The translations under genes and the position numbers were made by a program. The notes beneath the pieces were generated by a model. That model was given only the letters and a program-made list of their open reading frames with translations. It did no database searches and had not been told where the DNA came from. Below, in pieces: positions 7,300-57,722 of a stretch of DNA of 64,000 nucleotides. Origin of the DNA: Dasypus novemcinctus (Eukaryota; Chordata; Mammalia; Cingulata; Dasypodidae). Each line of letters begins with the position of its first letter. Positions within the stretch are counted from its first letter, which is position 1. The stretch spans positions 162,746,216 through 162,810,215 of the forward strand of contig NC_080673.1 in NCBI RefSeq assembly GCF_030445035.2, written 5' to 3'.

Positions 7300-8510
7300 T
7301 CTCCTCTGTCAGGGGTAGGGACAGAGCTGTAGTCATGTATAATGATCCAAGTTGGGCACAAGACTGTCTGTAGTCACCTGGAGACACTGATGAAGCTTCA
7401 CACCCTTACCTCCCCTACCTTAGGCAGGGATGGAGCTATAGTTTTGGTCAGCAATCTATGCTGTGTGGGTCCAAAATGACCACAGTTGCTCAGGTAAACT
7501 GATGTATCACCAGATCCTCTCCCTACTGGGAGTGGGAATGGGCCCTCTGAAGTGCCCAACAATCTAATCTTTGTGGACCAAATATGCCTGCATTTGCCCT
7601 TAGAGGCTTAGGGAGTACTGCCCCTTCTGCCTTTTAGGGGTGGGAATAGAGCCACAAATGCTCAACAGTTCAGTCCTGTAGGCTGAAAATACCCTCCATT
7701 GCCCAGAGAGGCTGAGGAGCCACCAGCTCCCTCCTATCCTATTGGGTGGTGGGGGTAGTTCTATGGGTGCTCAATGGTTCAGTCCCTTTAGGCCAAGAAT
7801 ACCTGCCATTGCCTGGAGAGGTTGAGGAAACACCAACCCCCTTCTATCCTCTTAAGGCATGGGGTTGGATCCACAGGCACCTGATATTTCAGTTTCTGTT
7901 GGCTGAAAGTACCCAGCATTGTCCAGAGAGGTTGTGGAGACACCAAAACCCTCCTATCCTATTGGGAGTGGGGTGGATTCATAGGCAACCCATGTTCCTG
8001 TCCATGCAGGCTGAAGGTCTGCTATTGCCCAAAAAGGCTGTGGGAAGACCAGCACCTTTCTTTCCTATTGGGGTGTGAGGGTGCATCTAGAAGTACCCAC
8101 CAGACCAGAGTGTGTGGGCCAAAAACACCTGCAATTACCCAAAGAGGCTGGGCAAACACAGTCCATCTCTTGTCCTAATGGGGATGGAGGTGGAGCCACA
8201 GGTGCCCAACAGTCAGACTTGTGCAGCCCAAAACTGTTGCCCTGAGAGGTTGAGGCAACACCAGCCCCCTCCTATCCTGTGGGGGGACAGAGGTGGAAAT
8301 GGACTCAAAGGCATTCAACGAATATGTGTGGGCTAAATAAAAACTCCTGCCATTGCCTGGAAAGGCTGAAGATATCCAGCTCCTCTTCTATTCTCTTGAG
8401 GTGAAAGGATGCAGTCCCAGGTGTCTGACTATTCAGCCTCTGCCAGCAGAGAGCACTTGCACTTCCCCGGAGAGCATAGTGCGGGTCCCACCACCTACCT
8501 CTCTGCTGAA
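7300..8510 (-). repeat. About ten tandem ~105-115-bp monomers in the LINE-1 5' region
   Basis: On the plus strand each unit runs roughly 'ggggtgg..g.agccacaggtgcccaacagttcag', then 'ccattgcccagagaggctga', then 'ccccctcctatcct'. Unit starts fall near 7420, 7530, 7635, 7745, 7855, 7965, 8070, 8180, 8280 and 8395, so the period is near 110 bp. Units differ by many substitutions, so the array is old. In rodent LINE-1 the 5' monomers act as promoters; the same role here is an inference. Antisense open frames through the array are by-products of the periodicity. Confidence 0.75.
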
Positions 8511-14124: not shown

Positions 14125-14545
14125 GGGAAGCGGATGTGGCTCAACTGATAGAGCATCTGCCTATCATATAGGAGGCCCAGGGTTCAAACCCAGAGTCTCC
14201 TGGCCTGTGTGGTGAGCTGGCCCACGTGCAGTGCTCCTACGTGCAAGGAGTGCCGTACCATGCAGGGGCACCCCCCACATAGGGGAGGCCCATGAACAAG
14301 CAGTGTGCCCTGTGAGGAGAGCTACCCTGCATGAAAAAAGCGCAGCCCACCTAGAAGTGGCACGGCACACATGGAGAGCTAACACAGCAAGATGACACAA
14401 CAAAAAGAGACACAGATTCCGGGTGCCACTGAGAATACAGGTGGACACAGAAGAGCACACAGAAAATGGACAGAAGAGAGCAGACAGTGGGACAGGGGGG
14501 AGGAAGGGGAGAGAAATACAAAACAAAACCAAAAAAACCACAACT
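14125..14545 (+). mobile_element. Armadillo-type tRNA-derived SINE, full length
   Basis: Starts gggaagcggatgtggctc. It has an RNA polymerase III A-box-like segment (tggctcaactgatagagc) and a B box (gggttcaaacc) about 40 bp later, a GC-rich body of about 350 bp and an A-rich tail at about 14515-14545. The long non-tRNA body is typical of the dasypodid SINE family. The long antisense open frames through it are accidental. Confidence 0.9.
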
Positions 14546-20687: not shown

Positions 20688-21123
20688 TGTTGTGGTTTGG
20701 AGCTCTATATACCCCAGAAAAAAACATGTTTTTAAACTTAATCCATTCCTGTGGATGTAAACCCATGGTAAGCAGAGCGTTAAGGTGTGGCCTACCTCAG
20801 TCAGGATAGGTCTTAATCCTATTACTGGAGTCCTATAAAAGTGGAATGATAATCAGACAGAGAGAAAGCCACAGGAAGCAAGAAGCTGAAATTTGAAGTA
20901 ACCTGGAAGATGAGGGAGAGGCCAGGAGAGGTTGCCATGTGACTTGCCTTGTGACAAGCTGGTCAGCTGCCAGACCCAGAATGCCAGTCTTCTAGGAGAA
21001 AGCATAGCCTTAATGATGACCTGATTTGAACTTTTCCTAATCTCCAAACCATGATCAAATAAGTTCCCATTGTGTAAACCCACAAATTACATAGTATTTG
21101 CATGAGAAGCCAAGGAAGTTTGT
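20688..21123 (+). mobile_element. MaLR-like LTR, left part (interrupted by an ERV)
   Basis: Starts tgttgtggtttggagct, has a poly-A-type end region (gttcccattgtgtaaaccc) and the closing text 'tttgcatgagaagccaagga'. It resembles ERVL-MaLR LTRs, and other copies in this window share the layout. The last dozen bases are missing here and appear as gacactaaaaca at 33294-33305, beyond the inserted retrovirus. AGAT lies on the outer side of both halves, which fits a short target duplication. Confidence 0.7.
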
Positions 21124-21312
21124 TGTGGGAAACTGGCTTACCTGTTCCCTATTTGTTTCACTTGTCCCCAATTATTATAAATATTGCCATACTGATGAGG
21201 AACAGGTTGGTTCCATCCTTGGTTTCTCTCTCGTGTTTCTCTTTGTCCATTATTTCTTTAAGTTCTGCATTACCTTCCCTTCGAGCAAACCTATTGTGAG
21301 CTGATTGCAGCA
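21124..21312 (+). repeat. 5' LTR of the outer ERV, with internal deletion
   Basis: 189 bp, begins tgtgggaaactggc and ends near gattgcagca. It matches the right LTR at 33034-33293 but lacks about 70 bp after 'gatgaggaaca', a segment that in the right LTR includes the poly-A signal aataaa. Confidence 0.8.
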
Positions 21313-23888: not shown

Positions 23889-23894
23889 GTTACG
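23889..23894. repeat. Target-site duplication of the inner provirus (left)
   Basis: gttacg, paired with gttatg at 32765-32770. Six bases fit a betaretroviral integrase. The one difference is C to T in a CpG. Confidence 0.8.
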
Positions 23895-24352
23895 TGCCCC
23901 AATCCGCCAGCAGGTTGAGGCAACATGTGGACCTGAAACAAAGCAAATAACGCAGAGACAGGGACAAGAGACATGAAGAATGGAGACAAGACAGGATTCT
24001 GATCAAGTCTCGTTTATTGAGGGTCAATCAGGGTTATATATAGCCAGGAATGGAGGAGGTGGTACACACTGATGACAGCGCATGTGTCGGTACATGATTG
24101 GGTAACTAGGTTTTCGATTTTCGTGCCACACGCATGCGCAGATGGTTGTTTGGCAACATCCGCGGAAAGACTTTCGCACGCTTTAGGGAGTGCCCAATCG
24201 GGGCCCGGGGGAGTGGCATGAGGATGGAGAAATAGAAACTTAACTACTTCAGCAAGGGTGGGGAAATAGAAACTTAACTGGGTTAGTATCTGAGATGGAG
24301 TTCGATAACAAAATGGCCGATAAAATACCAGTGCCAGAGGCAGCTTCCCACA
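23895..24352 (-). repeat. 3' LTR of the inner provirus
   Basis: 458 bp, TG...CA ends. On the minus strand it carries a TATA box (24034-24042) and a poly-A signal AATAAA (tttatt at 24013-24018) only about 20 bp later, so R is very short, as in type D retroviruses. It differs from the 5' LTR at about 31 positions plus a 4-bp indel by my hand alignment. Confidence 0.9.
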
Positions 24353-24372
24353 GGTCCCCCTTTTCTTTAATA
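24353..24372 (-). other. Polypurine tract
   Basis: On the minus strand an A/G-rich run (AAAGAAAAGGGGGACC) ends directly at the 3' LTR. It primes plus-strand DNA synthesis in retroviruses. Confidence 0.85.
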
Positions 24373-24603
24373 TTTTTAGCAGAAAAGGAAGACTGATGAG
24401 ACGGCCCATTCTGGGGGGACTGTGCCTGTCTTAGGTCAGGGCTGGCAAAAAGACGACCGCATTAAACCTTACCCATCATTGAGAATCGTGGCAGCGAAAG
24501 GCCACGTCTCTGTCTTAGGTGGTTGCTATCGTGAGAATGCCTTGCCCAGTTGCCCGTCATTGACTAACCAGTCCAGCGCCTCAGAAGATACTGACGAGAT
24601 ATT

Positions 24604-24848
24604 CATGGTCTGGGATCAGGCCTACCGGCTGGATCCATTTGCAAGTAGTGGTTAGACCCCTCGTCGTGGTTGGCCATGTCCAGTCTATGATAATGGACCT
24701 GGATGGGCTGCATTTTTATGGCATTCAGTTGTTGCTTTAAAAAGGCCATAATCTTGTTAAAGAGAATAGGTCCTAGCGATAGAGGTATTAGTAAACCAAG
24801 CAGGGGTCCCAAGAGGGGGAACAGCAGGGCTGGAGAGAAGTATAAACA
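24604..24848 (-). pseudogene. Second env-like membrane anchor and cytoplasmic tail
   Basis: Directly after the env stop, in a different frame, the minus strand encodes a long hydrophobic stretch (around 24840-24765, including LLGLLIPLSLGP) followed by FNKIMAFLKQQLNAIKM and a tail with HYHRLDM. This hydrophobic-then-amphipathic layout parallels the end of the intact env just upstream (APCLLKFLQKLMEAI...), but the two are different sequences. It has no start codon of its own (the open run begins without ATG). I read it as the 3' relic of an earlier gamma-type env, left when the present env was acquired. An unrelated hydrophobic frame is the alternative. Confidence 0.55.
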
Positions 24849-24856
24849 TGCTATTT

Positions 24857-26656
24857 CTAGGTGATGTCTTCCTGTTGTTCAAGCAGCCGATACTGCCTCA
24901 GCTGGGCGACGTATACTGCATAAGCTGATATGGCTTCCATAAGTTTCTGTAAGAACTTAAGAAGACAGGGTGCAAAAGCACAGATCATAATGATTATGAT
25001 AAAGGGGCTGATTAAAGGCACAAGCCAGGTCATGACGGGAGAGGTGAACCAAGCTGAAAAGGGGTGAGAGGGAGTAGGGGGCAAAAGTCCGTTTCGTAGA
25101 TCTTTTAGTTTCTTGACGTTTTGTTCTACAATGCCGGACTCATTTACATAATAGCAACATTCCTCTTGTAGAAACAGGCAGGTTCCTCCCTTATCAGCCA
25201 TTAAAAGGTCTATGGCACGCTGGTTCTGGAGTACAACTTGGGCCAGTGAAGTTAGTTGTGTCTGTAGGAACTCTAACGATTCTGCTGTGGATTGCAGATT
25301 AACCTGCCTTAGGTTTTCAAAATGTTGTCCTTGAAGGACAGAATGAGTGAGAGCACCCACACTGAGTCCTATAGCGGTGGCGGTGCCTGCAAGGGCTGTT
25401 CCTATTAGGACGGGTAGTAGGACCGCTCTCCGCCGGCGATGGTTAAAGAATTGTTCAAATTCACCAAGGGAGTAGTAGGAAAGCTGAGGTATTAAGAGGA
25501 CAGGAATGCAGGGGGAAGGTGTAGATGCACTGATGCACTGGTAGGTGGTATGATTGCACCAGTACAGGTAGGGTTCTTGGGAACAGCTCTGATTAGTGGT
25601 TATGTTGAGGGTACAGGCTATTGGAGAAGTATTGTTAATAGCATTAAATATGTGGATACAGGTGACGTTTGTTTTGGAGGGTGCCAAAGGGATTGTTTTA
25701 CCAGTGTTTGAGGTCACTAGTGATTGGTTATATGAAGGAGTGTCATTAAGCCACAAGGGGGTAGCCGCTAATAGTGGGCAGCTTACGGCTGCGCATCGAA
25801 AACAACTTGTGAGATTTAGCCGAGATGCGTCCTTAAGGATGTAAAGTGTATTTTGAATGATATCAACCCAGGTTAGGAGGGGGTGAACTGTGGACTGGGA
25901 ATCAAACATTTGTGTTAATTTTTGTTCCTGATCATGTATTTCCTTAGCCACTTTCGATAGGTCCCAGGTGACATTATAAAGAGCATATGTTCTAAAAATG
26001 GACACTCTCGCAAAGGGCCGGGAGTATCTATCATCAGGATAGAATGCTCTGTGAACTCCTTTTTGCCACCTATCATCCCATGGGTCCGATATGCGGATCC
26101 ACATGGTGCCATTAGTATGAGAATGATAGAAAACACACTTTAGATTGGAGGGTGGATGCAACGAAACATAACATGTGTGTTCATCATTCAAGAAGCAGGA
26201 CCAGTATGGGCACCTTCCGTAAGTCTTTCCATAATCATACTGGTTGCAATAGTCTTTGGTTTGTAAATGAGGAAAACACATGTAAGCATCATAGACAGTA
26301 CCCACCGAGGTATCTAGGGTTAAAGCTGTTTCTTTAAAAGACATAGTGACTGCAGTTTGACATCCTGAAGGGCTACAATAACCAGTGGCTAAAGTGGTAT
26401 CTTTGTCGTGTCCACCTTTGTTTTTAAAGAAGGTGCGCACTGTAAAGGTTTGGAGGTATAATTCCTTCTGGTATTTCTTGTTTGTGGTGGAAGTGGAGGT
26501 TTGAGTGCAGGTGAAGGTGAATAGTAGGAGAATGGTCCCTACCAAATAGGATGCATAGTGACAACGCCAAGTTACCAAAAACAGGACACTGCAACAAGAA
26601 AGGATGTATACATTACGAAGAGGATAATAAGCAGAAGTTTCTCTAGCGTGGTCCAA
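24857..26656 (-). CDS. env: Retroviral envelope glycoprotein, intact frame (gamma / type D architecture)
   Basis: 599 codons without interruption. Env binds the host receptor and fuses membranes. Visible parts: a hydrophobic leader (about residues 15-50, with the main hydrophobic core at 38-50); a surface subunit with CXXC (CFRC, 285-288) and about ten N-glycosylation sites; a basic cleavage site RRRR (407-410); a glycine/alanine-rich fusion peptide (411-435); a leucine-rich coil; an immunosuppressive-type segment LQNQRAIDLL (476-485); CX6CC (493-501); a single anchor (about 541-563) and a tail of about 35 residues. CXXC plus CX6CC is the gammaretroviral pairing, which predicts a disulfide link between subunits. 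Its start is the first ATG of the frame and overlaps no pol codon (pol stops at 26789). Length is usual for the group. The nearest functional relatives should be RD114-type envs that use ASCT2, but receptor use is inferred. Gag and pol of the same provirus are broken while this frame is open. Confidence 0.93.
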   Translation of the reverse strand: MDHARETSAYYPLRNVYILSCCSVLFLVTWRCHYASYLVGTILLLFTFTCTQTSTSTTNKKYQKELYLQTFTVRTFFKNKGGHDKDTTLATGYCSPSGCQTAVTMSFKETALTLDTSVGTVYDAYMCFPHLQTKDYCNQYDYGKTYGRCPYWSCFLNDEHTCYVSLHPPSNLKCVFYHSHTNGTMWIRISDPWDDRWQKGVHRAFYPDDRYSRPFARVSIFRTYALYNVTWDLSKVAKEIHDQEQKLTQMFDSQSTVHPLLTWVDIIQNTLYILKDASRLNLTSCFRCAAVSCPLLAATPLWLNDTPSYNQSLVTSNTGKTIPLAPSKTNVTCIHIFNAINNTSPIACTLNITTNQSCSQEPYLYWCNHTTYQCISASTPSPCIPVLLIPQLSYYSLGEFEQFFNHRRRRAVLLPVLIGTALAGTATAIGLSVGALTHSVLQGQHFENLRQVNLQSTAESLEFLQTQLTSLAQVVLQNQRAIDLLMADKGGTCLFLQEECCYYVNESGIVEQNVKKLKDLRNGLLPPTPSHPFSAWFTSPVMTWLVPLISPFIIIIMICAFAPCLLKFLQKLMEAISAYAVYVAQLRQYRLLEQQEDIT

Positions 26657-26788
26657 TCCTTAGGTGTTCCGGCGTAGAGCAGGAGGGCTCCTGTGATGAT
26701 GGCTCCACAACAAAGGAGGATTTCGGGGATGCCGCACAGCTGCATGAAGGCAGGTAAATATACCTGTAAGTGAAAAGGAGTGCTAATC

Positions 26789-27813
26789 TCAGGGAGAGTT
26801 CTCTGCCCTGGATGGATTATTGTTATCTATTTGTTTGACCAGACGTTCAGGCAACCATCTGGCTGCATCTAGTTCTTTTGAATATACACAGATGGATCCT
26901 CAGCCCCATATCAGAACTGGGTCAGGTCCGTGCCAGGTGTTATCCATTGTGTCTTTCCATAAGACTGTGGCATTTTTGTGTCAGTGTTAGGATGCCAGAA
27001 GCGTTCGGCTGCTGAATGTCCTTTCTGGTCCAAGTTTAGAAAATTTAATATGAAGAGAGAATGAGATATTAGATTTTTTGGTGTTCCTCTTGTGGGATAC
27101 CATTCCCCCTTTTTTATCTTTTGAATGGTATTTTTTAAAGACAGATTTGCTCTCTTGCCTATATCTTGTCTTTGGGGGTTGTATGGAATTCCCGTGGTGT
27201 GTTTAACACTTAACTGTTGGCAAAAGGTGGAGAAAACATGGCCAGTATATCCAGGGCCATTGTCAGTTTTTATGTGTTGTGGGGTTCCTAACACTGACAT
27301 AGCAGCTAACACGTGAGCGATAACGTTTTTTCCTGCTTTCCCTGTTTGTGGGATGGCGTAAATAAAACCGCTAAAGGTGTCAACTATGACATGCACATAT
27401 TTTAGGTTTCTGAATTCAGGAATATGGGTTACATCCATTTGCCAGAGGGCATTAGGTATCAGACCACCGGGGTTTACTCCTAGATGAGGTGTAGGTGAAA
27501 GGGTTACACAGGAAGGGCATCCTTTAACAATCTGACGAGCTTGTTCTCTGGTAATTCTGAACATAAGCTTTAAAGTATGTGCATTAATATGATGTAACTG
27601 GTGGGCTTTAACAGCTTTGTTAAGGTTATTCAAGTTGTTATGCATGCCCTGGTTAACATAGTAGCCAAGTGGCTTGATTAGCCAAATGGTTTCCTTGGGT
27701 AAGGGGACCCGGAAGATTGGAATGAGCTTTAAGGTGACCAATATAAAAGGAGTGGTTTCTTTTATGAATAAGAGATTGCAGTTGAGTGAATAATACAGCT
27801 GCTTCTGAGACAT
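26789..27813 (-). pseudogene. pol: Integrase domain of pol, catalytically altered
   Basis: Integrase joins viral DNA to the host genome. The frame from 27813 contains the HHCC zinc site (H75, H79, C99, C102 counting from the first codon of this frame), the first catalytic aspartate in WQMD (residue 127) and the second in KTDN (184). Exactly 35 residues on, where the catalytic glutamate belongs, there is lysine (residue 220, codon 27154-27156). A frameshift near 26985 moves the C-terminal domain into another frame, where a WLPERLVKQ motif is readable near 26850 before a stop at 26789; an in-frame stop near 26895 also interrupts that part. The frame is joined to RNase H only through a frameshift near 27665. 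Confidence 0.88.
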
Positions 27814-28348
27814 TCCTTATCTGAGCGGCCGTTTCAAGTAAAGGGACTGACTGGGCTATATAAGCACTGTCTGTGAAGAGGTTGAAGGGGGTACTTTGGA
27901 ATGCTGAGAACACAGCCACAAAAGCTTGTAGCTCTGTAAGCTGTGCAGATTTTGAACGAGTTTGAAAACAGACAGTTTCGTTGTTAAAGACATATGCAGG
28001 CATTCCCGAGGAGGACTCGTCAGTGAATATAGACAGGGCTTCAGTAATGGGTTGGAGAGAAGTGGTTAAGGGGAAAATGAAGTCATGGGTACTCAAAAAT
28101 TGTAATAGCTTATCATTGGGGTAATGATTGTCTATTTTCCCAGCATAAGATGCACAAGCAATAGGCCAGCTGTTAGTTGTTTGCAACAGCCAACTAATTT
28201 GTTCTCTAGTATATGGCTGAATAATGGCGTCAGGTTCTTTACCAAAATAACGTTTGCCTTGTTCTCTCCCTAGGCAGACAATATCTGCGACAGCTTGGTA
28301 GTAGGGATAAATTACCTTAGGGGGTGACACGGGTAAGTGTACCCACAA
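27653..28348 (-). pseudogene. pol: RNase H domain of pol, fragment
   Basis: RNase H removes the RNA strand during reverse transcription. The frame contains the ordered motifs IFTDESSSG, TELQAF and LFTDSAYI, which supply the first three acidic residues, and then HLKAHSNLPGPLTQGN. In the last motif (GNHLANQAT) the position that is normally aspartate is asparagine. A frameshift near 28350 separates it from the reverse transcriptase and another near 27665 from integrase. The first part of the frame is the RT connection region. Confidence 0.85.
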
Positions 28349-29580
28349 TAGGGGGCTGATTGCCAGAAAACTGCTGTGGGTGTAAGAGAAGTCTTACATA
28401 TGACAAAGAGCAAAGGTTGGTTATAGTCCATGGTAGTGACAAATTGTGATTGTATAGTTTGTTTAACCGTTATAAGGGCTTGGCGTCCCTCCTGAGTGAT
28501 ATCCCTAGGTGAGTTAGGGTTAGAATCTCCTTGTAATATGTCAAATAGGGGTTTTAAATCTCCCATAGTCAGTTTTAGGTAAGGGCGGAGCCAATTTATA
28601 TCACCTAAGAGTTTTTGGAAGTCATTTAGGGTTTTTAGTTTATCTAGTCTGATGTTGGCTTTTTGAGTGGTTATTTTATTTCCCGTCATATGAAAGCCTA
28701 GGTAAGAATAAGGGTCTTGTAATTGTACTTTATCTGGGGCAATTCGAGGCCCATGTGCCTTTAAGGCCTTTTCCATATCATGGTAGCATTTTAGGACTTC
28801 TTGCCCATTTTTTCCTGCTATTAAGATATCGTCCATATAATGGATAACATAAAGGTTCTTCCATACTGTTCTCACTTCAGTTATAGCAGTAGCCACGAGT
28901 TTTTGACACAAGATGGGGCTGTCTGTCATGCCTTGGGGTAGGACTTTCCATTGATATCTCTTCATAGGTTCTTTAAAGTTTACGGAGGGGAGACTAAATG
29001 CAAAACGCTTTTGGTCTGTTGGATGCAATGGGATGGAAAAGAAACAGTTCTGTAGATCTATAATGATTTTATAGTACCCAAGGGGAATGGCTACAGGGAA
29101 AGGGAGTTCAGGTTGCAGGGCCCCCATGGGGACCATGGTTTTATTAACAGCTTTCAGATCTTGGAGCAATCGCCATTTTCCAGGTTTTTTCTTAATGACA
29201 AAAATAGGTGTGTTTTAGGGCGAATTGCTTTCTGTAACATGTCTGGCTGCCAACTGTTCCTGTACTAACTGTTGAGCAGCCTGCAGTTCGTCTGTTGATA
29301 AAGGCCATTGATTGACCCACACAGGTTCCTCGGAATACCGAGAGATAGGGTCTGCATGGGGTACAGGAGAATCAATGACCTCTAGGCTAAATTTCCTAAG
29401 CCTTTCCTATCATATTGTCCCTTTATTGATAAAGGCTGGGGGATGCCTGATTCAAATTTTCCTAACCCCTTTCCTGGCTTGAAACCTTGTGAGAGCATTT
29501 GAGCTGTAATCATGCTGTTGGGACTGCACATAATAAGTTGCATCTGGGAAAGTATGTCTTGTCCCCAAAGGTTGATAGGG
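28312..29580 (-). pseudogene. pol: Reverse transcriptase domain of pol, broken
   Basis: The polymerase core is open from 29169 to 28312 and shows the first catalytic aspartate in IIIDLQNCFFSIPL and the YMDD motif (HYMDDILIAG), the form used by betaretroviruses and lentiviruses. The N-terminal fingers continue upstream with IKKKPGKWRLLQDLKAVNKT but are cut by a stop (TAA, 29215-29217) at a position that is normally a conserved tryptophan. Upstream to about 29580 the frame is poorly preserved. There is no open link to protease. Confidence 0.88.
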
Positions 29581-29583
29581 AGG

Positions 29584-29830
29584 TTAGCTATGACTGTAAG
29601 GCTGCACTGAACCTTGATTGCCCTCGTTGTTTCTCCAGGTAAGCAGTTTTGAGCTTTTTTCGAGATTTTCAGTTTGTCCTATACCTGTTAGGTGAGTAAG
29701 GGTTGGGATGAGGGGCCAGGATTGGGGCCATTTGTTCTTTTTTATAATAGTTACATCTGCCCCTGTGTCTATGCGTCTGGAAAATTTTTTGCCGTCTAAG
29801 AGTAAAGATAACATTGGTTTACCGGGTGAA
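29584..29830 (-). pseudogene. pro: Retroviral aspartic protease remnant
   Basis: The frame begins inside the protease and shows RRIDTGADVTII, the catalytic DTGA loop. The flap and second half decay into another frame after about 29650, so the enzyme cannot be made. It follows dUTPase coding text directly, as in betaretroviruses where dUTPase and protease share the pro frame. Confidence 0.8.
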
Positions 29831-29884
29831 ATGGCTTGGGCCCAGAAGACATCAGAAGAACCAAATCCTCTATCCTGTCACTGC

Positions 29885-30140
29885 CTTTTACGGTATTGTT
29901 AGTTTACACTAGTGGGAGGATTAATAATTGGGCGATCCGTTGCCCTGCAGGAAAAGAGATAATACTTTGTGGGGCAGAAGCCATTACCTTTATCTCACCG
30001 GTGAAGTCATTATTAATGACTCAAGGGGAAATATGGAGGCCACTGATAAGGGAACTTCCTTGCCCGATTATTAGGCCAAAGGTGTTTCTTGGCATGGGGC
30101 CAAACACACTGGTAGGTAGGGCCTGTATTCCCATCTGAGG
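29885..30140 (-). pseudogene. dUTPase domain remnant
   Basis: The minus strand encodes text with dUTPase features: PRNTFGLIIGQGSS near 30075, GEIKVMA near 29995 and [13 protein letters not shown] near 29925, in the family order. A stop (TGA, 30021-30023) interrupts it. dUTPase keeps uracil out of viral DNA. A domain at this place, ahead of protease, is a hallmark of betaretroviruses and not of gammaretroviruses. Confidence 0.8.
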
Positions 30141-30301
30141 TGTTAATACTGTGTGGGAGGAGGCACAGCGGTCCAATCCTGTGCTCTCAGGTATGGCTCT
30201 ACAGAGTTGCGAAAGGGATTGGCGTTCCCCAGAACAAAGTTGATTGTCCTATAAGCTTGTTTGGGTTTTGGGGCCTGGGGCTGGCCCTGCCTCCCGTTTC
30301 C

Positions 30302-30976
30302 CTAATGGGGAGGGAGAAGTTGGCCTTTTAAGTCGGTTTGGGACCTGCATTCATTGGCCCAGTGTTTGCTGCAGAGGCAATGAGGGCAAACTCTGGGGGC
30401 ACTATTAATTTTGTGGGTAGTACCAAGGGTGGCACAGTTTTGGGCAAAATGGCCGGGATCACCGCACTTAAAACAGGCTTTTCCCTGTTGAGGCTGCAAA
30501 ACATCTTTCAGGGCGGCAGCCATAGCAAGGCCTTGTTGATAGGCAGGGCCTATCTCAGAGCAGAGCCTAATGTAACCAGACAAGTCCTCCTTTTTTCTAT
30601 AGGGTCTAATTGCGGCCTGACAAGCTGCATTGGCATTTTCGAAAGCGATCTGCTTTACATAATCAGCCTTTGTATCAGCATCGCCAAACATTCTTTCAGC
30701 AGCTGTACATAGTCTGCCCACAAAATCTAAAAAGGGTTCTTCTGGTTTTTGCTTAACGTTAGTGAGGGAAGAGGTGGCATTCTCTTTGGTTGGCAACCTT
30801 TTCCAAGCCTTAAGGGCAGCGGTTTGAATTTGGGCAAACAGGTCAGGGTCATACTTCATTTGGTTTACATTATCTCTATAATCATTTGATCCTGTAAGCA
30901 TATCTATATCCAACCCACTGCCGGCCTGAGCATTATGCCTGGCTGTATCGGCACAGAACTCGGCAGACTCGGATTT
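30302..30976 (-). pseudogene. gag: Gag: capsid C-terminal part and nucleocapsid
   Basis: Open from 30976 on. It contains the major homology region ([18 protein letters not shown]) of the capsid and two CCHC zinc knuckles, [14 protein letters not shown] and [14 protein letters not shown], that bind genomic RNA. Two knuckles fit a betaretrovirus. The stop TAG at 30977-30979 cuts it from the capsid N-terminal half, which is still readable at about 31190-30980 in the same frame. The first in-frame methionine is at 30911-30913, well inside the capsid. Confidence 0.9.
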
Positions 30977-30979
30977 CTA

Positions 30980-32126
30980 TAATAGGTAATCTCCCGCACT
31001 GAGAGCAGAGCGAGCAAGAGTACACCAATTATGAGGCGTAAGCCAGCCATCGGCAATGTGCTCCAAGATGGTAATAGTATACAGAGCAGTGGGCCTATAA
31101 GCAGAGGCAGCGGACTTAAGCTCTTTTAAAGTTTTAAATGGAAAGGTAGAGTGCATCCGAACTTCCTCATCATCATCATTTCTTTTTTTGGTAACTGGGT
31201 ACGAGGGGTAATTATAGGGGGGTGGAATGGAGAAGAGTTAGGAGGGTATTTAGGTGACAGTTTAAGCATGGGTGGCCCTGACGGGAAACTACAGCTGGGC
31301 AGGAAGTCGATAAAAGGATTGTGGTTAGCTGCCTTCCTGTTTTATGTTTTTCTAATGCTTTTAGCTGCTCTAGCTCCTTTATGAGTTGTAAATGTTCCCT
31401 CTGTAAACGAATTTGCTCTTTTGTTTTTTCTATTTTTGCTATGATTTCTTGGTTATCCTCCCTTTCAACAATGCCCGCACCGGTAGGGTGAACGGGCGGC
31501 GGTGCGGAAGGGAGAGTTGTATACGGTGGCGGGAAGGTAATGCAGGTATACTTTATCGGTTTGTTCGCGACATGATCTGTTTCAGAACCGGAGGATTCAG
31601 TATCTGAGTTTGTTTTAGTCTTTTTTCCCGCGCCGGTATTTTTTATTCTCTGTTTTCTAGTTTTGGGTATGGCACCTCTCGAATCGCCCGAAAGTATTTC
31701 TCCCTCGCTTTCTAGCGAGAGCAAATCTACTTCATCTCTATGCCTCTCATGGATGCCAGGGGAATTTGATCCAGGAGGGTCTGCTCGGCCCTGTGACAAG
31801 ATTTCTTCACCCTTTTTAATCACATTTGCTACGACTGCATCTCTATGGTGGACACAAACTATATCATTGATAAGGTTCCAATAGGAGAAGGCAGTTACGG
31901 GGATTTTTTCAGGACCAAAGGTTTTATAGAAGTCCTGTAGAGCGTCTCTTACTCTCCTCCACCATTGCTCATCTATGCTCCCTTCTTGTGGAAACCAAGG
32001 ACAGACTTCTTTTTGGAAATCAAAGAATTGTAGGAGTTGCTTAACTTTAACCTTTACTCCTCGTGCCTTTAGTGCTTCACATAAGCCTTCAACGAACGCC
32101 TCATGTTCACTCATTGCTTGTCCCAT
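30980..32126 (-). pseudogene. gag: Gag: matrix and capsid N-terminal part, frameshifted
   Basis: Starts MGQAMSEHEAF, a glycine-2 context for myristoylation, and continues with a betaretroviral-type matrix domain (VCPWFPQEGSID around residues 56-67). It then runs into an acidic/serine-rich and a proline-rich linker with a P/T-rich PPPYTTL stretch that includes a PPPY late-domain motif (about residue 210). The frame runs to 31212, but a frameshift near 31330-31345 has moved the remaining proline-rich text and capsid N-terminus to another frame. Matrix would direct Gag to the membrane. Confidence 0.9.
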
Positions 32127-32290
32127 TTCGCTGTTTACTTACTGAGGTCCTGACCGTGCAGCAGGTTCCTGTGTGGTGTCCTCTTCAGCTACTGAGGTCT
32201 TGACCGCATGGCCGAATCCACACAGTGTCCTCTCAGGATTCAGGGTCGACCCTTTAACTGGCGCTCCCTACATCATTGTTTCGGGTTCAG

Positions 32291-32308
32291 GCCCCACGTT
32301 GGGCGCCA
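32291..32308 (-). other. Primer-binding site of the inner provirus (tRNA-Lys type)
   Basis: On the minus strand TGGCGCCCAACGTGGGGC, two bases after the 5' LTR end. It fits the lysine tRNA used by betaretroviruses. Confidence 0.9.
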
Positions 32309-32310
32309 CT

Positions 32311-32764
32311 TGCCCCAATCCACCAGCAGGTTGAGGCAAGACGTGTACCTGAAACAAAGCAAATAACGCAGAGACAGGGACAAGAGATACGAAGAATGGA
32401 GACAAGACAAGATTCTGATCAAGTCTCGTTTATTGAGGGTCATTCAGGGGTATATATAGCCAGGAATGGAGGAGGTGGTATGTACTGACCACAGCGCATG
32501 TGTTGGTACATGATTGGGTAACTAGGTTTTCGATTTTCACACCATACGCATGCGCAGATGGTTGTTTGGCAATGCCTGCGGAAAGACTTTTGCACACTTT
32601 AGGGAGTGCCCAATCGGGACCCGGGGGAGTGGTGTGAGGATGGAGAAATAGAAACTTAACTACTTCAGCGAGGGTGGGGAAATACTTAACTGGGTTAGTA
32701 TCTGAGATGGCGTTCGGTAACAAAATGGCCGATAAAATACCAGTGCCAGAGGCAGCTTCCCACA
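32311..32764 (-). repeat. 5' LTR of the inner provirus
   Basis: 454 bp. On the minus strand: TATA box (32451-32458) and AATAAA (tttatt at 32429-32434) in the same short spacing as in the 3' LTR. It would drive transcription leftward through gag, pol and env. Confidence 0.9.
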
Positions 32765-32770
32765 GTTATG
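32765..32770. repeat. Target-site duplication of the inner provirus (right)
   Basis: gttatg, partner of gttacg at 23889-23894. After it, the internal sequence of the outer ERV resumes. Confidence 0.8.
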
Positions 32771-33033: not shown

Positions 33034-33293
33034 TGTGGGAAACTGGCTTACCTGTTCCCTGTTTTTTACACTTGTCCCCAATTATTGTAAACGTTGCCAT
33101 ACTGATGAGGAACAGCTGCTTTGGAGTTCTTAATAAATATGATGAGGAAACTAGGTTCAAGGCTCTCAGTTCCAGAAGCCGCGAGTCCCCTGGTTGCATC
33201 CTTGGTTCCTCTCTCATGTTTCTTTGTCAGTTATTTCTGTAAGTTCTGCATTGCCTTCCCTTGGAACAAACCTATTGTGAGCTGATTGCAACA
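33034..33293 (+). repeat. 3' LTR of the outer ERV
   Basis: 260 bp, tgtgggaaactggc...gattgcaaca. It carries the poly-A signal aataaa at 33132-33137. It matches the shorter left LTR. Confidence 0.85.
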
Positions 33294-33305
33294 GACACTA
33301 AAACA
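33294..33305 (+). mobile_element. Right end of the interrupted MaLR-like LTR
   Basis: gacactaaaaca matches the closing sequence of the same LTR family elsewhere (gaaactaaaaca at about 61678-61689). It continues the copy begun at 20688. Confidence 0.6.
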
Positions 33306-33915
33306 AGATAAACCTAAAGTTAGATCTTTGCCCTGCTATTAATACACTTAATTTACTAACTTTGTAAACTTTGGCCCTATTTTCCTATCTTTAAACTGGT
33401 AGATACATACCCTCCAAATAGCTGTTTACAGATTAAATGAGATATTGTAGTGTTTGGCATGTACTAAGTAAACAACATAAAGCTGCCATCAAAAAGCATT
33501 ATAGCTTATTGGTTAAGAACATGGACTTTGGATCTAAATAGACCAATAGGCCTGCTCTACTATTCATTTGACCTTGGATAAGTTAAAGAACCAAATTTAA
33601 GAGAGTTAATTAACTGTGAAATGATGGCCATGCTATCTAATTCATAGGATTTTTATTTCTTGAGGAAAATATATATGATATATTTAACACATATCATGGT
33701 GACTGACACATTGAAAGTACTTAAATGGTTACTGTAAGAGACTCAACTTCATCAGAAAAGATGTCACCAGTTACACTGAGGCTTAATGAAAAATGTATCA
33801 GGATACTAATAAGATATTATAATATAATTCAATTTTATTATTTAAATGTAACTAAGAGACATTTTGAATGTATACCACCAGAAATAATTGATAAACAATG
33901 CTTTCAGAAATAGTA
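33306..33915 (+). mobile_element. MIR-like SINE remnants
   Basis: 33320-33480 and 33490-33720 each follow the MIR layout weakly: a 'gttaagaacatggactttgg'-type head in the second, and a '...ttaaatgagatattgtagtgtttggcat' tail in the first. Both are old. No gene. Confidence 0.5.
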
Positions 33916-34361
33916 TGTCTTAGTTCCCTTGGCTGCTCAAGCAAATACTATGCAATGGGCTGGGTAAAATAATGGGGACTTACTGGTTTGCAGCTGAGGA
34001 AGTCCAAATAAGGCACTATCAAGGTCGTGCTTTCTTGCCAAAGACTGATACTCTGGGGCTGACTGCCTGCAGTCCTTGGTCACTGGCTCCTCTGTCACGT
34101 GGGAACCTCTCCTTGCCTTTCCCTTCTCTTCCACTTTCCATTGAATTTCAGCTTCTTGTTTCCCCTGGCTTTCTCTCTGTCTGAATTTCATTCCACTTAT
34201 AAAGGACTCCCGTAATAGGATTAAGACCCATCCTGACTAAGGTGGGCCGCACGTTAAATGAAGCAGCCCATCATAGGATCCTACTTACAATAGGTCCATA
34301 CCCAGTGGAATGGATTAAGGTTAAGAACGTGTTTCTGAGTACATAGCTCCAAACCACAACA
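33916..34361 (-). mobile_element. MaLR-like solo LTR
   Basis: 446 bp. Its plus-strand start tgtcttagttcccttggctgc and end agctccaaaccacaaca are the reverse complement of the LTR type at 20688. It belongs to the same family, inserted in the opposite direction. Confidence 0.75.
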
Positions 34362-37974: not shown

Positions 37975-38386
37975 TTTTTTTTTTTTTAAAGATTTATTTA
38001 TTTCTCTCCCCTTTCCCCCCACCCTGGTTGTCTGTTCTCTGTGTCTATTTGCTGCGTCTTCTTTGTCTGCTCTGTTGTTGTCAGTGGCATGGGAATCTGT
38101 GTTTCTTCTTGCTGCGTCATCTTGTTGTGTCATTTCTCCGTGTGGGTGGTGCCATTCTTAGGCAGGCTGCACTTTCTTTCACGCTGGGCGGCTTTTCTTA
38201 TGGGGTGCACTCCTTGTGCGTGGGGCTCCCCTACACGGGGAACACGCCTGTGTGGCAGGGCACTCCTTGCGCGCATCAGCACTGCGCATGGGCCAGCTCC
38301 ACATGGGTCAAGGAGGCCCAGAGTTTGAACCACGGACCTCCCATGTGGTAGACGGACACCCTAACCACTGGGCCAAGTCCGCCGCC
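37975..38386 (-). mobile_element. Armadillo-type SINE, full length, with perfect duplication
   Basis: On the minus strand it begins ggcggacttggcccagtggt, has a B box of the form GGTTCAAACT, and ends in a poly-A tract (T-run at 37975-37987). Perfect 13-bp target duplications on both sides suggest it is among the youngest insertions in the window. Confidence 0.93.
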
Positions 38387-38399
38387 TAAAGGTTATTTC
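38387..38399. repeat. Target-site duplication of SINE (right)
   Basis: taaaggttatttc, identical to 37962-37974. Confidence 0.9.
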
Positions 38400-40949: not shown

Positions 40950-43900
40950 TCAATGTGAAGAACAGATAGAGAAAAGAATAGGGAAAAAAAATCAGCCATG
41001 TCTCAGGGATTTTAGTGAAAACATGAAACACACAAATATATACATTGTGTGTGTATATAATGGAGAAGGAGAAGAAAAGGGAAAAGGGGTAGATAGAATA
41101 TTTGACCCAAAACTTTCCAACCCTTATGAAAGACATAAATACACATGACCAAGAAGCACAACATACTCCAAACAGAATAAATTATAAAATATCTACTCCA
41201 AGACACATGCTAATCAGAATGTCAAATGCCAAAGATAAAGAGAGAATTCTGAAAGCAGCAAGAGAAAAATGATTTATCACATACAAGGTATTCTCAATAA
41301 GATTATGTGGTGATTTCTCAACAGAAACCATGGAGGCAGGAAGGCATTGGTATCATATATTAAGGCACTAAAAGAGAAAAACTGCCAGCCAAAATTCTTT
41401 CAAATTGTCACTCAAAAATGAGGGGGCATTTAAATACTCACAGATAAATAGAAACTGGGAGAGTTCATCAACAAGAGATCTCCCTATAAGAATTAGTAAA
41501 GGGAATTCTGCATGTGGAAAGGAAAGGACAGGAGAGAGTGGCTTAGAGTAGTGTGAAGAAATAAAATCATCAGTAAAGGAAATAAAAGAGTAAATGCAAA
41601 ACCCAATAGTACTGTCTGCTCAACATACCACTCTCTACTCTTTAATTCATATAAGAATCAGAATACAATTGAACAACAAGAAGGCATATTTCCTGGTAAT
41701 GGACATGTAAAATATAAAGTGTTAAAGTCAGACAAAAACAGCATACAGAAGGGAAACAGAGATATGGGAACATGTATGCTAATGAAGCTAAATTGGTATT
41801 TTTTCAAATTAGGAGGTTATAGATGTCAGCTCTGTAATATAAACCCAAGGGTAACCACAAAGTAAGTATATGAAAAATATCCAGAAACAGAAATGACAAA
41901 GGGATCATCCAGATACATCACAAAGGATCAAACTACACAAAAAAGGAGGTAGCAATAAAGGAAAAGAGAAACAACAACAACAAAAATATGACATATAAAA
42001 ACCAAAGGACAAAATGGCTGAAGTAACTACTGCTTTTACAGTAATAACACTGACACTGAGTGTTAATGGAATAAACTCCCAAATCAAAAGACACAGGATG
42101 GTAGAATAAATAAAACAAGCATGACCCAACATTTTATTGTTTACACAAACTCACCTTAGGGAAATTTATAGCCCTAAACACTTAAATTTACCGTGAATAG
42201 ATAGCTAAATTTAAAAACCTGATTGAACACCTAGGGGAATGAGAACAAGAACAGCAAACTAATCCCAAAGCAACAAGATGGAAAGAAATACAAAGATTAG
42301 AGCGGGAATCAATGAAATTGAAAATTAAAAAACAATAGAGAGAATTAACAAAAATCAAAAGTCAGTTCTTTGAAAAGGACAATAATGTTAACAAAACTTA
42401 GACTGACAAAGTAAAAAAACAGAAGATGCAAATAAATAAAATCAGAAATGAGAGGGGGTACATTACTTCTGACCCCATAGAAATAAAAGGATCACAAGAG
42501 GATACTATGAAAAACTGTATGCCAACAAAATAGACACTCTAGATGAAATGGACAAATTCTTAAATGGACACAATCAACCTACAGTGATGCTTCAAGATAT
42601 TGAAGACCTTGGCAGACCAATTACACAAAAAGAGATGGAATCCATTATCAAAAACCTCCCTCCCCAAAAACCTGGGACCACATAGCTTCCCAGGGGAATT
42701 TATTCCAAGAAGATTTAATACCACTGCTGCTCAAAATCTTCCAAGAAATTGAAGAGGAGGGAACACTACCAAATTCATTCTATGAGACCAATATCACCCT
42801 ATTAACAAACTGGACAATACAACAATAATAGAAAATTAAAGACTAATTTTTCTTATGAATATGGATGCAAAATTCCTCAACAAAGTACTTGCATCTCGAA
42901 TCTAACAGCACAGCAAAAGAATTATACACCATGATCAAGTGGATTTTTTATCACAGGTATTAAGGTGGTTCAACATGAGCTAATCAATTAATAAAATACA
43001 TTACATCAACAAAATGAAGGGAAAAAATTACAATGATACATAAAAGACATTTGACAAAATTCAGCCTCCTTTCTTGATAGAAACACTTTGAAAATTAGGA
43101 ATAGGACATTTCCTCAACATGATAAAGGGAATATATGAAAAATCCACAGCTAATATCATATTCAATGATGAAAGCCTGGAAGCTTTCACTCTAAGATCAG
43201 GAACAAACAAAGATGATCATGGTTAACACTGTTATTGTATACTGTGCTGGAAGTTGTAGCTAGAGTATATAAGCAAGAAAAAGAAATAAAAAGCATCCAA
43301 ATTTGAAAGGAAGAAACAAAACTTTCACTATTTGCAGAAAACATGATCCTTTATATAGAAAGTCCAAAAAATCTACAAAAAGCTACTACAGTGAATAAAC
43401 ACATTTAGCAAAATGGTGGGGTACAAGATCAACATGCAAAAATCTGTAGTGTTTCTCTACACTAGTTATGAGCAAGCTGAGAAGGAAATCAAGAAAAAAT
43501 TTCATTTAAAAAAGCAACTGAAAAATCAAATTATCTTGGAATTAATATAATCAAGGATGTAAAAGACTTGTACACAGAACAGGACAACAAAACATTGCTA
43601 AAAGAAATCAAAGATTTCCTAAATAAAGGAAAGGGCATTCCGTGTTCATTAACTGGAAGTCTAAATATCATTAAGAAGTCAGTTCTTCCCAAAATGATTT
43701 ACAGATTCAATGCAACCTCAACTAAAATTCTAATAGTTTACTGTGCAGAAATGGAAAACACAATTATCAAATTTATTTGGTAAGGTAGGGGGCCCCGAAT
43801 AGCCATAAACATCTTGAAAAGGAAGAACAAATTTGGAAGACCCAGACTTCCTCACTTTAAAGAATATTAAAAAATTACAGTGGTCAAAACAGGATGGTTC

Positions 43901-44870
43901 TGGCACCAGGATAGATTAACATAAAGGAATCGAATTGAAAATTCAGAAATAGATCCTCACAGCTAGGGCCAATTGATTTTTGACATGGTAACCTAATATT
44001 TTCAACTGGGAAAGAATAGTCTCTTCAACTACTGATGTTGGGAGAACTTAATATCAGTATGCAAAAGAATGAAAGAGGATCCCTATGTCATACTTCATAC
44101 AAAAAAGTAACCCAAAATTGGTCAAAGAACTAAATAAAAGAGCCAATACCATAACACTCCCAGAAGAAAACACAGTGATGCATCTTTAGGTTCTTATTTT
44201 AATAGTTTCTTAGACTTTACACTCACAACACAAGCAACAAAAGAAAAAATAGAGAAATGGGACCTCATCAAAATTAAGAATTTTTGTGCATCAAAGGACT
44301 TTGTCAGGAAAGTGAAAAGACATCCTATTCAATGGGGAGAAATATTTGGAAATTACATATCTTATAAGGGTTTAATATCCAGAATACATAAAGAAATCCT
44401 ACAACTCTACAATAGAAAGACAAACAAATTAAAAAATGGGCAAAACACTGGAACAGATATTTATGCAAAGATGACATAAAATTAGCTAAAAAGCATATGA
44501 AAAGATGCTCAACAACTCCAGCTATTAGGGAAATGCAAACTATTTTAAAAAATAGTAAATTAATAGTAACATTATGCTAAGCTAAAGAAACCAGACACAA
44601 AGTACTGCATACTATATTACTCCATTCACATAAAATGTAAATATAAATAAATTTACAGGGAGAAATAGATTAGTGGTTCTTTAGGGCTGGAGAATGATAG
44701 AGGAATTTTGAAGTGCTCTGCTAAGAGATATGGGGTTTTTCTTCTTGGAGTAATGAAAATGTTCTAAAATAGATTGTGGTGATGAATGCACATCTCAATG
44801 AATATACTAAAAACCATTGTTTGTACACTTTGATGGTATGGCATGTGAATATATCTCAGTAAAACTATGT
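40950..44870 (+). mobile_element. Old LINE-1 (5'-truncated, decayed)
   Basis: Plus-strand LINE-1 of an old subfamily. Untranslated and ORF1-side text at about 41220-41640 ('gaattctgaaagcagcaaga') is followed by ORF2 text from about 42300 ('gaggatactatgaaaaactg', 'attcaatgcaacctcaacta'). The 3'UTR at about 44580-44870 ends 'tgtgaatatatctcagtaaa'. The longest surviving coding piece is 43568-43783 (LLKEIKDFLNKGKG... YRFNATSTKI), part of the ORF2 C-terminal half. The rest is full of stops. Confidence 0.85.
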
Positions 44871-52731: not shown

Positions 52732-53157
52732 TCTTTTTTTTTTTAAAGATTTATATTTTTATTTATTTCTCTCCCCTTCCCCCTCCAACCCCAGTTGTCT
52801 GCTCTCTGTGTCCATTCGCTGTGTGTTCTTCTGTGACCACTTCTATCCTTATCAGCAGCACCAGGAATCTGTTTTTCTTTTTGTTGCATCATCTTGTTGT
52901 GTCAGCTCTCTGTGTGTGTGGTGCCTTCTTGGGCAGCCTGCACTTTCTTTCGCATTGGGCGGCTCTCCTTACGGGGCACACTTCTTGCATATGGGGCTCC
53001 ACTACGCAGGGGATACCCCTGCGTGGCATGGCACTCCTTGCACGCATCAGCACTGCACGTGGGTCAGCTCGACGCAGGTCAAGGAGGTCCGGGGTTTGAA
53101 CCGCGGACCTCCCATGTGGCAGGCGGACGTCCTAACCACTGGGCCAAGTCTGCCGCC
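52732..53157 (-). mobile_element. Armadillo-type SINE, full length
   Basis: Same layout as 37975-38386: minus-strand head at 53157, B box near 53095 (plus-strand 'ggtttgaacc'), T-run at 52734-52744. I see no clear target duplication. Confidence 0.88.
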
Positions 53158-57184: not shown

Positions 57185-57680
57185 TGTAGAAGTTTGATAT
57201 CGTTATGAATTCCAAAAACATTGGATTATGTTTGTAATCTGGGCTGTATCTGGGCATGATTGAGTTATGATTAGGGCTTTGATTGGGCCATATCATTAGG
57301 GCATGACAGATGAAAGACATGGCAAAGGACAGAGTTGAGGGTTTTTGATGTTGGAGTTTTGATGTCAGAGTTTGATGCTGAAGCCTTAAACTGGAGCCCC
57401 AGGAAGTAAGTACACAGAGAAAAGAGAAGCAAGACCTGGGAAGAAAGGAACTCTGAACCCAGAGAGGAGCAAGACCCTGGAAGGGAGGAACTCAAGAAGC
57501 CTGAAACCTCACAGACATTGGCAGCCATCTTGCTCCAACACGTGAAAATAGACTTTGATGAAGGAAGTAACTCATGTTTTATGGACTGGTATCTGTAAGC
57601 TCCTACCCCAAATAAATACCCTTTATGAAAACCAACCAATTTCTGTTGTTTTTCATCAGCACCCCCTTGGCTGATAATAA
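57185..57680 (+). mobile_element. MaLR-like LTR
   Basis: Starts tgtagaagtttgatatc and carries aataaa (about 57611) before a closing 'ttcatcagcacccccttggc'. It is the reverse complement of the LTR at 58957-59434 over its length. No clear target duplication. Confidence 0.7.
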
Positions 57681-57722
57681 AAAGGGAAAATAGTATTTCT
57701 ATAGATTTTGAGTCTGATTGCT

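What the first reader, a model, noticed from the sequence alone, without database searches (positions are those of the whole stretch)
23895..32764. Chimeric provirus: betaretroviral gag-pro-pol with gamma-type env
The sequence shows dUTPase before protease, two Gag zinc knuckles, a YMDD reverse transcriptase, a tRNA-Lys primer site and a 6-bp target duplication, all betaretroviral. The same provirus carries an env with CXXC, RRRR cleavage, CX6CC and an immunosuppressive-type segment, all gammaretroviral. This is the type D plan. From memory, an armadillo ERV of this kind (dasy-env1.1, ASCT2 user) is published; this copy may be that locus or an older relative.
Basis: partly seen in the sequence, partly recalled or inferred. 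Interest (0 to 1): 0.85.

Follow-up and report, generated by a model that had tools for sequence, protein, structure and literature searches.

The report
Armadillo provirus with a borrowed envelope
This is the decayed remnant of an ancient retrovirus, very probably in an armadillo, that kept the core machinery of one virus genus but carried a surface protein of another; such mixtures are known, and this one looks like a different mixture from the armadillo virus already published.

Summary
A complete provirus lies on the minus strand at 23895-32764: paired LTRs, a 6-bp duplication (one mismatch), a Lys-type primer site, betaretroviral gag-pro-pol with dUTPase and G-patch, and a gammaretroviral-type env. 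I add a Mason-Pfizer monkey virus (M-PMV) packaging signal, a gag/pro frameshift site, and a candidate transport element (CTE) between env and the 3' LTR. Two points of interpretation change. First, the env aligns over SU and TM with ERV-Fc-named envelopes of whales, monkey and marmot and with armadillo loci, and lacks the SDGGGXXDXXR motif of the ASCT2-using RDR group. Second, papers seen here report an extra frame (orf-x) inside integrase of the published armadillo DnERV (Env1.1); here the two other frames hold 15 and 24 stops over the open integrase frame, so this is probably another betaretrovirus than dasy-env1.1. The copy is dead: gag, pro and pol are broken, env's start is out of frame, LTRs differ by 7%. 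One paper reports ERV-Fc from every eutherian superorder except Xenarthra, and ERV-Fc-like TM in two rodent betaretroviral genomes; this would be a xenarthran case. New member of a known kind.

The parts
23889..23894 (.). target-site duplication, left copy GTTACG
   Evidence: read directly
32765..32770 (.). target-site duplication, right copy GTTATG (one mismatch)
   Evidence: read directly
32311..32764 (-). 5' LTR
23895..24352 (-). 3' LTR, 92.4% identical to the 5' LTR
32291..32308 (-). primer binding site, tRNA-Lys1,2 type (tRNA assignment recalled)
   Evidence: start of the M-PMV packaging match
31997..32308 (-). Mason-Pfizer monkey virus packaging signal (RF00459)
   Evidence: 66.5 bits, gathering 54, E 6.5e-13; alignment
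31214..32126 (-). gag, 5' part: MGQ start, matrix (Gag_p10), PPPY and PSAP strings
   Evidence: Gag_p10 E 9.8e-24
30302..31237 (-). gag, 3' part in another frame: capsid and two zinc knuckles; in-frame stop at 30977-30979
30245..30302 (-). gag/pro ribosomal frameshift site (RF01097)
   Evidence: 44.1 bits, gathering 43
30021..30248 (-). dUTPase remnant
   Evidence: Pfam dUTPase E 2.6e-5
29584..29877 (-). protease (DTGA), another frame
   Evidence: RVP E 2.1e-14; 1nso 90 bits
29382..29678 (-). end of protease and G-patch, in another frame
   Evidence: G-patch E 3.2e-10
28312..29406 (-). reverse transcriptase (YMDD), one in-frame stop at 29215-29217
   Evidence: RVT_1 and RVT_thumb; 7sr6 284 bits, next chain 133; frames
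27653..28393 (-). RNase H, another frame
   Evidence: only solved match 7sr6, 153 bits
26911..27816 (-). integrase, another frame; no orf-x in the other two frames
   Evidence: 3jca 229 bits; stops
26554..26556 (-). ATG at the place where two armadillo relatives begin (MH...), out of frame with env here
   Evidence: read directly; alignment
24857..26659 (-). env frame, open stop to stop (600 aa) but without an ATG before residue 105; SU CFRC, RRRR site, CX6CC
24402..24590 (-). candidate constitutive transport element: two ACCTAAGACAG copies (24510-24520, 24426-24436) on opposite arms of one long predicted hairpin
24355..24368 (-). polypurine stretch next to the 3' LTR
   Evidence: read directly

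Best explanation
An extinct M-PMV-like (type D) betaretrovirus that carried an ERV-Fc-like gammaretroviral envelope integrated here and decayed. Shown: integration anatomy, betaretroviral gag-pro-pol, M-PMV-type packaging signal and a gag/pro frameshift site, an env homologous to ERV-Fc-named envelopes over SU and TM, no RDR motif, no orf-x. Inferred: the env was acquired by recombination (template switching) as a cassette between pol and the CTE; unspliced RNA was exported by NXF1 bound to the CTE; entry used a receptor set by the ERV-Fc-like SU, not named here; integration about 12-17 million years ago (LTR K2P 0.073 and a recalled rate of 2.2 to 3e-9 per site per year).
For: Gag, pro and pol nearest to betaretroviral chains (virus names of chains partly recalled); Pfam; Rfam; AAGACA repeats in a CTE-like hairpin (motif from passages of PMC4330393 and PMC4174252). 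SU-only BLASTP against two whale envelopes E 1e-38 and 2e-37; SU N-terminal part E 2e-19 and 3e-19; best of 200 shuffled rows E 6.6. TM tree: window, armadillo, whale, porpoise, monkey and marmot rows split from syncytin-1, M-PMV, syncytin-2 and P0010, SH-aLRT 97.6, UFBoot 99. Control: porpoise ERV-Fc-like TM with an MLV/XMRV-type pol stretch.
Against: The TM tree has 67 columns, 15 rows, no outgroup; by plain identity syncytin-1 (43 of 67) is as near the window TM as the whale and porpoise rows (41-44 of 67). 'FC1' and 'BabFc' are database names, not verified; no human HERV-Fc1 row was found. SU is only 26-31% identical to non-armadillo relatives, and its N-terminal part reaches only E 0.01 with Callithrix. 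RF01097 is just above cut-off. The CTE region folds no better than shuffles (z -1.5, 14 of 200 as good), the AAGACA bases are only partly unpaired in the prediction, and Rfam gave no CTE match. An exact direct repeat of 11 or more arises in 21 of 1000 shuffles of the env-LTR interval.
Confidence: 0.78

Rival explanations
1. The provirus is an old member of the published armadillo DnERV (dasy-env1.1) group, with an RDR-type, ASCT2-using envelope whose motif has decayed or diverged.
For: Same host by the 90% env hit; a review gives about 12 million years and ASCT2 for the armadillo group (PMC10536682 passage); syncytin-1 is the best solved env match (126 bits).
Against: DnERV (Env1.1) is reported with an orf-x inside integrase; here 15 and 24 stops fill the other two frames, no open run above 72 codons. 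No SDGGG nor DGG in the window env nor in P0001-P0010 (11 of 11; but P0001, P0006 and P0010 lack the N-terminal part, so their absence says less). The SU part (210 aa) matches no retroviral solved chain (no positive control run) while it matches ERV-Fc-named SU. M-PMV TM shares 34 of 67.
Confidence: 0.12
2. The env frame is kept by selection (a syncytin-like or antiviral host gene) while gag-pro-pol decayed.
For: About 1.69 kb of env is open, with at least 7 breaks in about 5.2 kb of gag-pro-pol.
Against: The start codon of the relatives is out of frame and no ATG precedes residue 105, so no signal peptide is encoded in frame. Scaling the breaks gives about 2.3 expected and 1 seen (Poisson P of 0 or 1 about 0.33, worked by hand), so the openness is not more than chance.
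Confidence: 0.05
3. Env and gag-pol come from two separate insertions or an assembly join, not from one chimeric virus.
For: None found.
Against: One pair of LTRs with a shared target duplication encloses everything; a CTE-like repeat and polypurine stretch follow env.
Confidence: 0.03

Closest known systems
Mason-Pfizer monkey virus / simian retroviruses (type D betaretroviruses)
   Same: gag-dUTPase-pro-pol plan, primer site, packaging signal, gag/pro frameshift, CTE-like repeat, gamma-type env in the same place
   Different: env aligns with ERV-Fc-named envelopes and lacks the SDGGGXXDXXR motif
Armadillo DnERV with dasy-env1.1 (Malicorne et al. 2016, J Virol; title and other papers' passages seen, paper not held)
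   Same: chimeric endogenous betaretrovirus in Dasypus; a review gives about 12 million years, near the age estimated here
   Different: reported with an orf-x inside integrase, an ASCT2-using env and an unfixed insertion; here no orf-x, no RDR motif, 7% LTR divergence and a broken env start
Mouse and rat betaretrovirus-like genomes with ERV-Fc-like TM (PMC4798954, passages seen)
   Same: ERV-Fc-like env on a betaretroviral genome
   Different: other hosts; the paper calls the two rodent genomes unrelated; no comparison with this backbone was possible
ERV-Fc (gammaretroviral ERV group)
   Same: env SU and TM homology
   Different: native ERV-Fc is gammaretroviral; here gag-pol is betaretroviral

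Membership tests
Type D betaretrovirus (M-PMV/SRV) | betaretroviral matrix, capsid, two zinc knuckles | tested here: met
   Gag_p10, Gag_p24, zf-CCHC, zf-CCHC_5; capsid chain 6hwi 195 bits, next 110
Type D betaretrovirus (M-PMV/SRV) | dUTPase ahead of protease, G-patch after it | tested here: met
   dUTPase match weak (24.4 bits, cut-off 22)
Type D betaretrovirus (M-PMV/SRV) | M-PMV packaging signal and Lys-type primer site | tested here: met
   RF00459 66.5 bits
Type D betaretrovirus (M-PMV/SRV) | CTE with two AAGACA internal loops between env and 3' LTR | tested here: inconclusive
   two ACCTAAGACAG copies on opposite arms of a predicted hairpin; fold energy not exceptional, z -1.5
Type D betaretrovirus (M-PMV/SRV) | gammaretroviral-type env | tested here: met
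   TLV_coat 131 bits, only Pfam match
RDR (ASCT2) interference group | SDGGGXXDXXR motif in SU | tested here: not met
   motif from a PMC10152393 passage
RDR (ASCT2) interference group | entry through ASCT1/ASCT2 | not testable with these tools
   needs an assay
ERV-Fc (env gene only) | env groups with ERV-Fc TM | tested here: inconclusive
   split 97.6/99 with ERV-Fc-named rows, but names unverified, 67 columns, and identity to syncytin-1 equal to that of whale rows
ERV-Fc (whole virus) | gammaretroviral gag-pol | tested here: not met
DnERV (dasy-env1.1) | orf-x inside integrase | tested here: not met
   feature from passages of PMC8278194 and PMC8877266
DnERV (dasy-env1.1) | identity of env sequence and insertion site | not testable with these tools
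   paper and sequence not held; genome search did not complete
Syncytin-like domesticated env | coding frame with start and signal peptide | tested here: not met

The most novel reading that the evidence does not exclude
Armadillos were entered by at least two separately built beta/gamma chimeras: the published DnERV (orf-x in pol, ASCT2-using env) and this one, an M-PMV-type betaretrovirus without orf-x carrying an ERV-Fc-like env. ERV-Fc-type envelopes thus reached Xenarthra, the one eutherian superorder where ERV-Fc was reported missing, as a cassette inside a betaretrovirus and not as an ERV-Fc virus.
Probability: 0.5. Interest if true: 0.6.

Novelty: new member of a known kind. Interest (0 to 1): 0.45.

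Why it matters
It adds a host superorder to the record of env exchange between gamma- and betaretroviruses, and suggests that the env, not the whole virus, was the unit that crossed into Xenarthra. With a second, differently built chimera in the same host it makes the question testable how often betaretroviruses swapped their envelopes and whether each swap changed the receptor.

Tried and rejected
A domesticated env was considered because its frame is open while gag-pro-pol is broken; the out-of-frame start and the expected number of breaks do not support it. Searches for relatives in viral contigs with env (two pattern matches, neither a relative) and RT (no match) gave none. The profile search A1 (7994 candidates scored) returned 11 proteins: the 10 and P0131, so no HERV-Fc1, HERV-W or RDR rows came for a fuller tree. 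The RT search listed 120 of 890 hits, nearly all unnamed; the few named ones are ERV-K-like or unspecific and none is called gammaretroviral; the unnamed were not classified, and no RT tree was built. The solved-chain lists for RT, capsid and protease show the best 60 of 207, 159 and 163 sequences and for integrase the best 60 of 129, so lower gammaretroviral matches there were not seen. A paper search for armadillo SINE names gave nothing of use; that the SINE is an armadillo one is recall only. Rfam's RSV_RNA match (18.8 bits, cut-off 105) was dropped as chance.

Full report
Observation. The provirus is on the minus strand and its ends are exactly 23895 and 32764. The LTRs (32311-32764 and 23895-24352) match at 92.4%; one search counted 31 mismatches, 25 of them transitions, in 453 ungapped columns, K2P 0.073. 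The flanks carry a 6-bp duplication with one mismatch, GTTACG and GTTATG. The primer site TGGCGCCCAACGTGGGGC follows the 5' LTR after two spacer bases.

Genes. Pfam on ten frames gave Gag_p10, Gag_p24 (both domains), two zinc knuckles, dUTPase, RVP, G-patch, RVT_1, RVT_thumb, RNase_H and integrase, and for the env frame TLV_coat alone. Among solved chains the best matches are: capsid 6hwi 195 bits (next 110); protease 1nso 90, with two near-equal chains that I take for the same virus, then 25; integrase 3jca 229, with three further chains down to 170, then 108; RT 7sr6 284, next 133; RNase H 7sr6 153 and no other. I recall 6hwi and 1nso as M-PMV, 3jca as MMTV and 7sr6 as HERV-K; the tables give only molecule names. 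All four are betaretroviral.

RNA elements. Rfam at gathering thresholds gave two matches in 64 kb, both here and both in sense: the M-PMV packaging signal (66.5 bits) and a gag/pro frameshift site (44.1 bits, cut-off 43). Between env and the 3' LTR there are two copies of ACCTAAGACAG, the only two in the window (0.03 expected, 0 of 100 shuffles with two). They lie on opposite arms of one predicted hairpin, 24402-24590. One paper's passage describes the CTE as internal loops in two-fold symmetry, each with a conserved AAGACA (PMC4330393); another names AAGACA as the NXF1-binding motif of the M-PMV CTE (PMC4174252). The layout fits a CTE. Against it: the fold energy does not stand out (14 of 200 shuffles as good), the AAGACA bases are only partly unpaired in the prediction, and 21 of 1000 shuffles of the interval hold an equally long repeat.

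State. From the frames (no reference alignment): gag has at least one change of frame and one in-frame stop, pro at least two changes of frame, pol at least two changes of frame and one in-frame stop, in all at least 7 breaks. By eye the end of integrase seems to run on in another frame; this is not counted. Env is open over about 1.69 kb, but the ATG that stands where two armadillo relatives begin (MH...) is out of frame and meets a stop after five codons; no in-frame ATG precedes residue 105. The closest database protein, P0001 from Dasypus novemcinctus, also begins at that later Met. As it stands this copy makes no working envelope and no virus.

Which env. The protein search (7995 candidates scored) returned 10 proteins: three of Dasypus (90, 50 and 47% identical), three of whales and porpoise, two of New World monkeys, one of marmot, one unnamed. 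Of the nine with a source name seven bear ERV-Fc-type names (FC1 or BabFc); two are called only 'Envelope protein' or 'Uncharacterized protein'. SU alone aligns with 9 of 10 SU rows at E 6e-12 or better and not with P0010, whose SU looks incomplete. The N-terminal part of SU alone gives E 2e-19 and 3e-19 for the two whale rows, 2e-13 porpoise, 5e-14 marmot, 2e-11 Plecturocebus, 0.01 Callithrix; 200 shuffled rows gave nothing better than E 6.6. The same SU part has no retroviral match among solved chains (no positive control was run). The RDR motif SDGGGXXDXXR, called important for ASCT1/ASCT2 binding (PMC10152393, passage), is absent from the window env and from all ten relatives, three of which lack the N-terminal part. 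In a TM tree of 15 rows and 67 columns, the window, armadillo, whale, porpoise, monkey and marmot rows are split from syncytin-1, M-PMV, syncytin-2 and P0010 at 97.6/99. Against this: plain identity over those columns does not separate syncytin-1 (43 of 67) from the whale and porpoise rows (41-44 of 67).

Control for chimerism. P0131 of the porpoise has an ERV-Fc-like TM and, in the same gene model, an RT/RNase H stretch whose solved matches are 'ribonuclease H p80' and XMRV chains (best 63 bits). The window's RNase H matches no such chain at E up to 0.01. So the same sort of env goes with a gamma pol in the porpoise and with a beta pol here.

Is it dasy-env1.1? Two papers' passages say that the armadillo DnERV (Env1.1) of Malicorne et al. 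has an orf-x inside the integrase region, like JSRV and a bat virus (PMC8278194; PMC8877266). Over 26911-27816, where the integrase frame is open, the two other frames hold 15 and 24 stops and no open run above 72 codons. That is too many to be the decay of an orf-x in a copy whose LTRs differ by 7% (inference). With the missing RDR motif this speaks for a separate lineage. The sequences themselves could not be compared.

Literature. The ERV-Fc paper (PMC4798954; passages) found ERV-Fc in 28 species of every eutherian superorder except Xenarthra, and mouse and rat TM with ERV-Fc identity inside two unrelated betaretrovirus-like genomes. A review (PMC10536682, passages) says of the armadillo group that it is about 12 million years old with a recombinant env that recognises ASCT2. 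The echidna paper (PMC10152393, passages) says that Malicorne et al. found 162 nearly full-length env frames in this armadillo, so this locus may have been counted. PMC8220723, PMC11536146 and PMC13315792 name the armadillo only in their reference lists; in PMC4724089 the armadillo passage concerns ERV-L. Searches by 'dasy-env' (0 papers), 'betaretrovirus' with 'ERV-Fc' and 'env' (2 papers), 'HERV-Fc' with 'armadillo' (1 paper) and the listings showed no title or opened passage describing an armadillo beta/ERV-Fc chimera; not all listed papers were opened, and subscription papers are mostly missing from the library.

Verdict. Real, correctly located, and correctly called a beta/gamma chimera of type D plan. 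The env is better called ERV-Fc-like than RDR-like, and the provirus is probably not of the dasy-env1.1 group, so the ASCT2 inference does not follow. New member of a known kind, and perhaps a second, separately built chimera in armadillos.

Noticed in passing
2827-5148 (-) and 42227-44542 (+): Two LINE-1-like stretches (ORF2-type frames) about 74% identical to each other.
   Followed up: no
14149-14528, 37992-38387, 52756-53158, 56170-56411: Four related copies of a SINE that looks tRNA-derived, with an A-rich tail (one read; matches); I recall it as an armadillo family but no call confirms it.
   Followed up: partly
20780-21309 and 33034-34257: Related repeat pieces on both sides of the provirus, partly direct and partly inverted, 77-93% identical; probably dispersed repeats.
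   Followed up: no
57185-57682 and 58956-59434: An inverted pair of about 500 bp, 79% identical.
   Followed up: no
7640-7973: About three copies of a 110-bp tandem unit, 69% matches.
   Followed up: no
54594-54634: A 42-column match (86%, minus relative to the query) to positions 64-105 of the 5' LTR taken in plus-strand order, far from the provirus.
   Followed up: no
proteins P0002 and P0003 (Dasypus novemcinctus, not in the window): Two further armadillo ERV-Fc-named envelopes with a start Met but no match to the cleavage pattern searched; both end soon after the CX6CC region.
   Followed up: no
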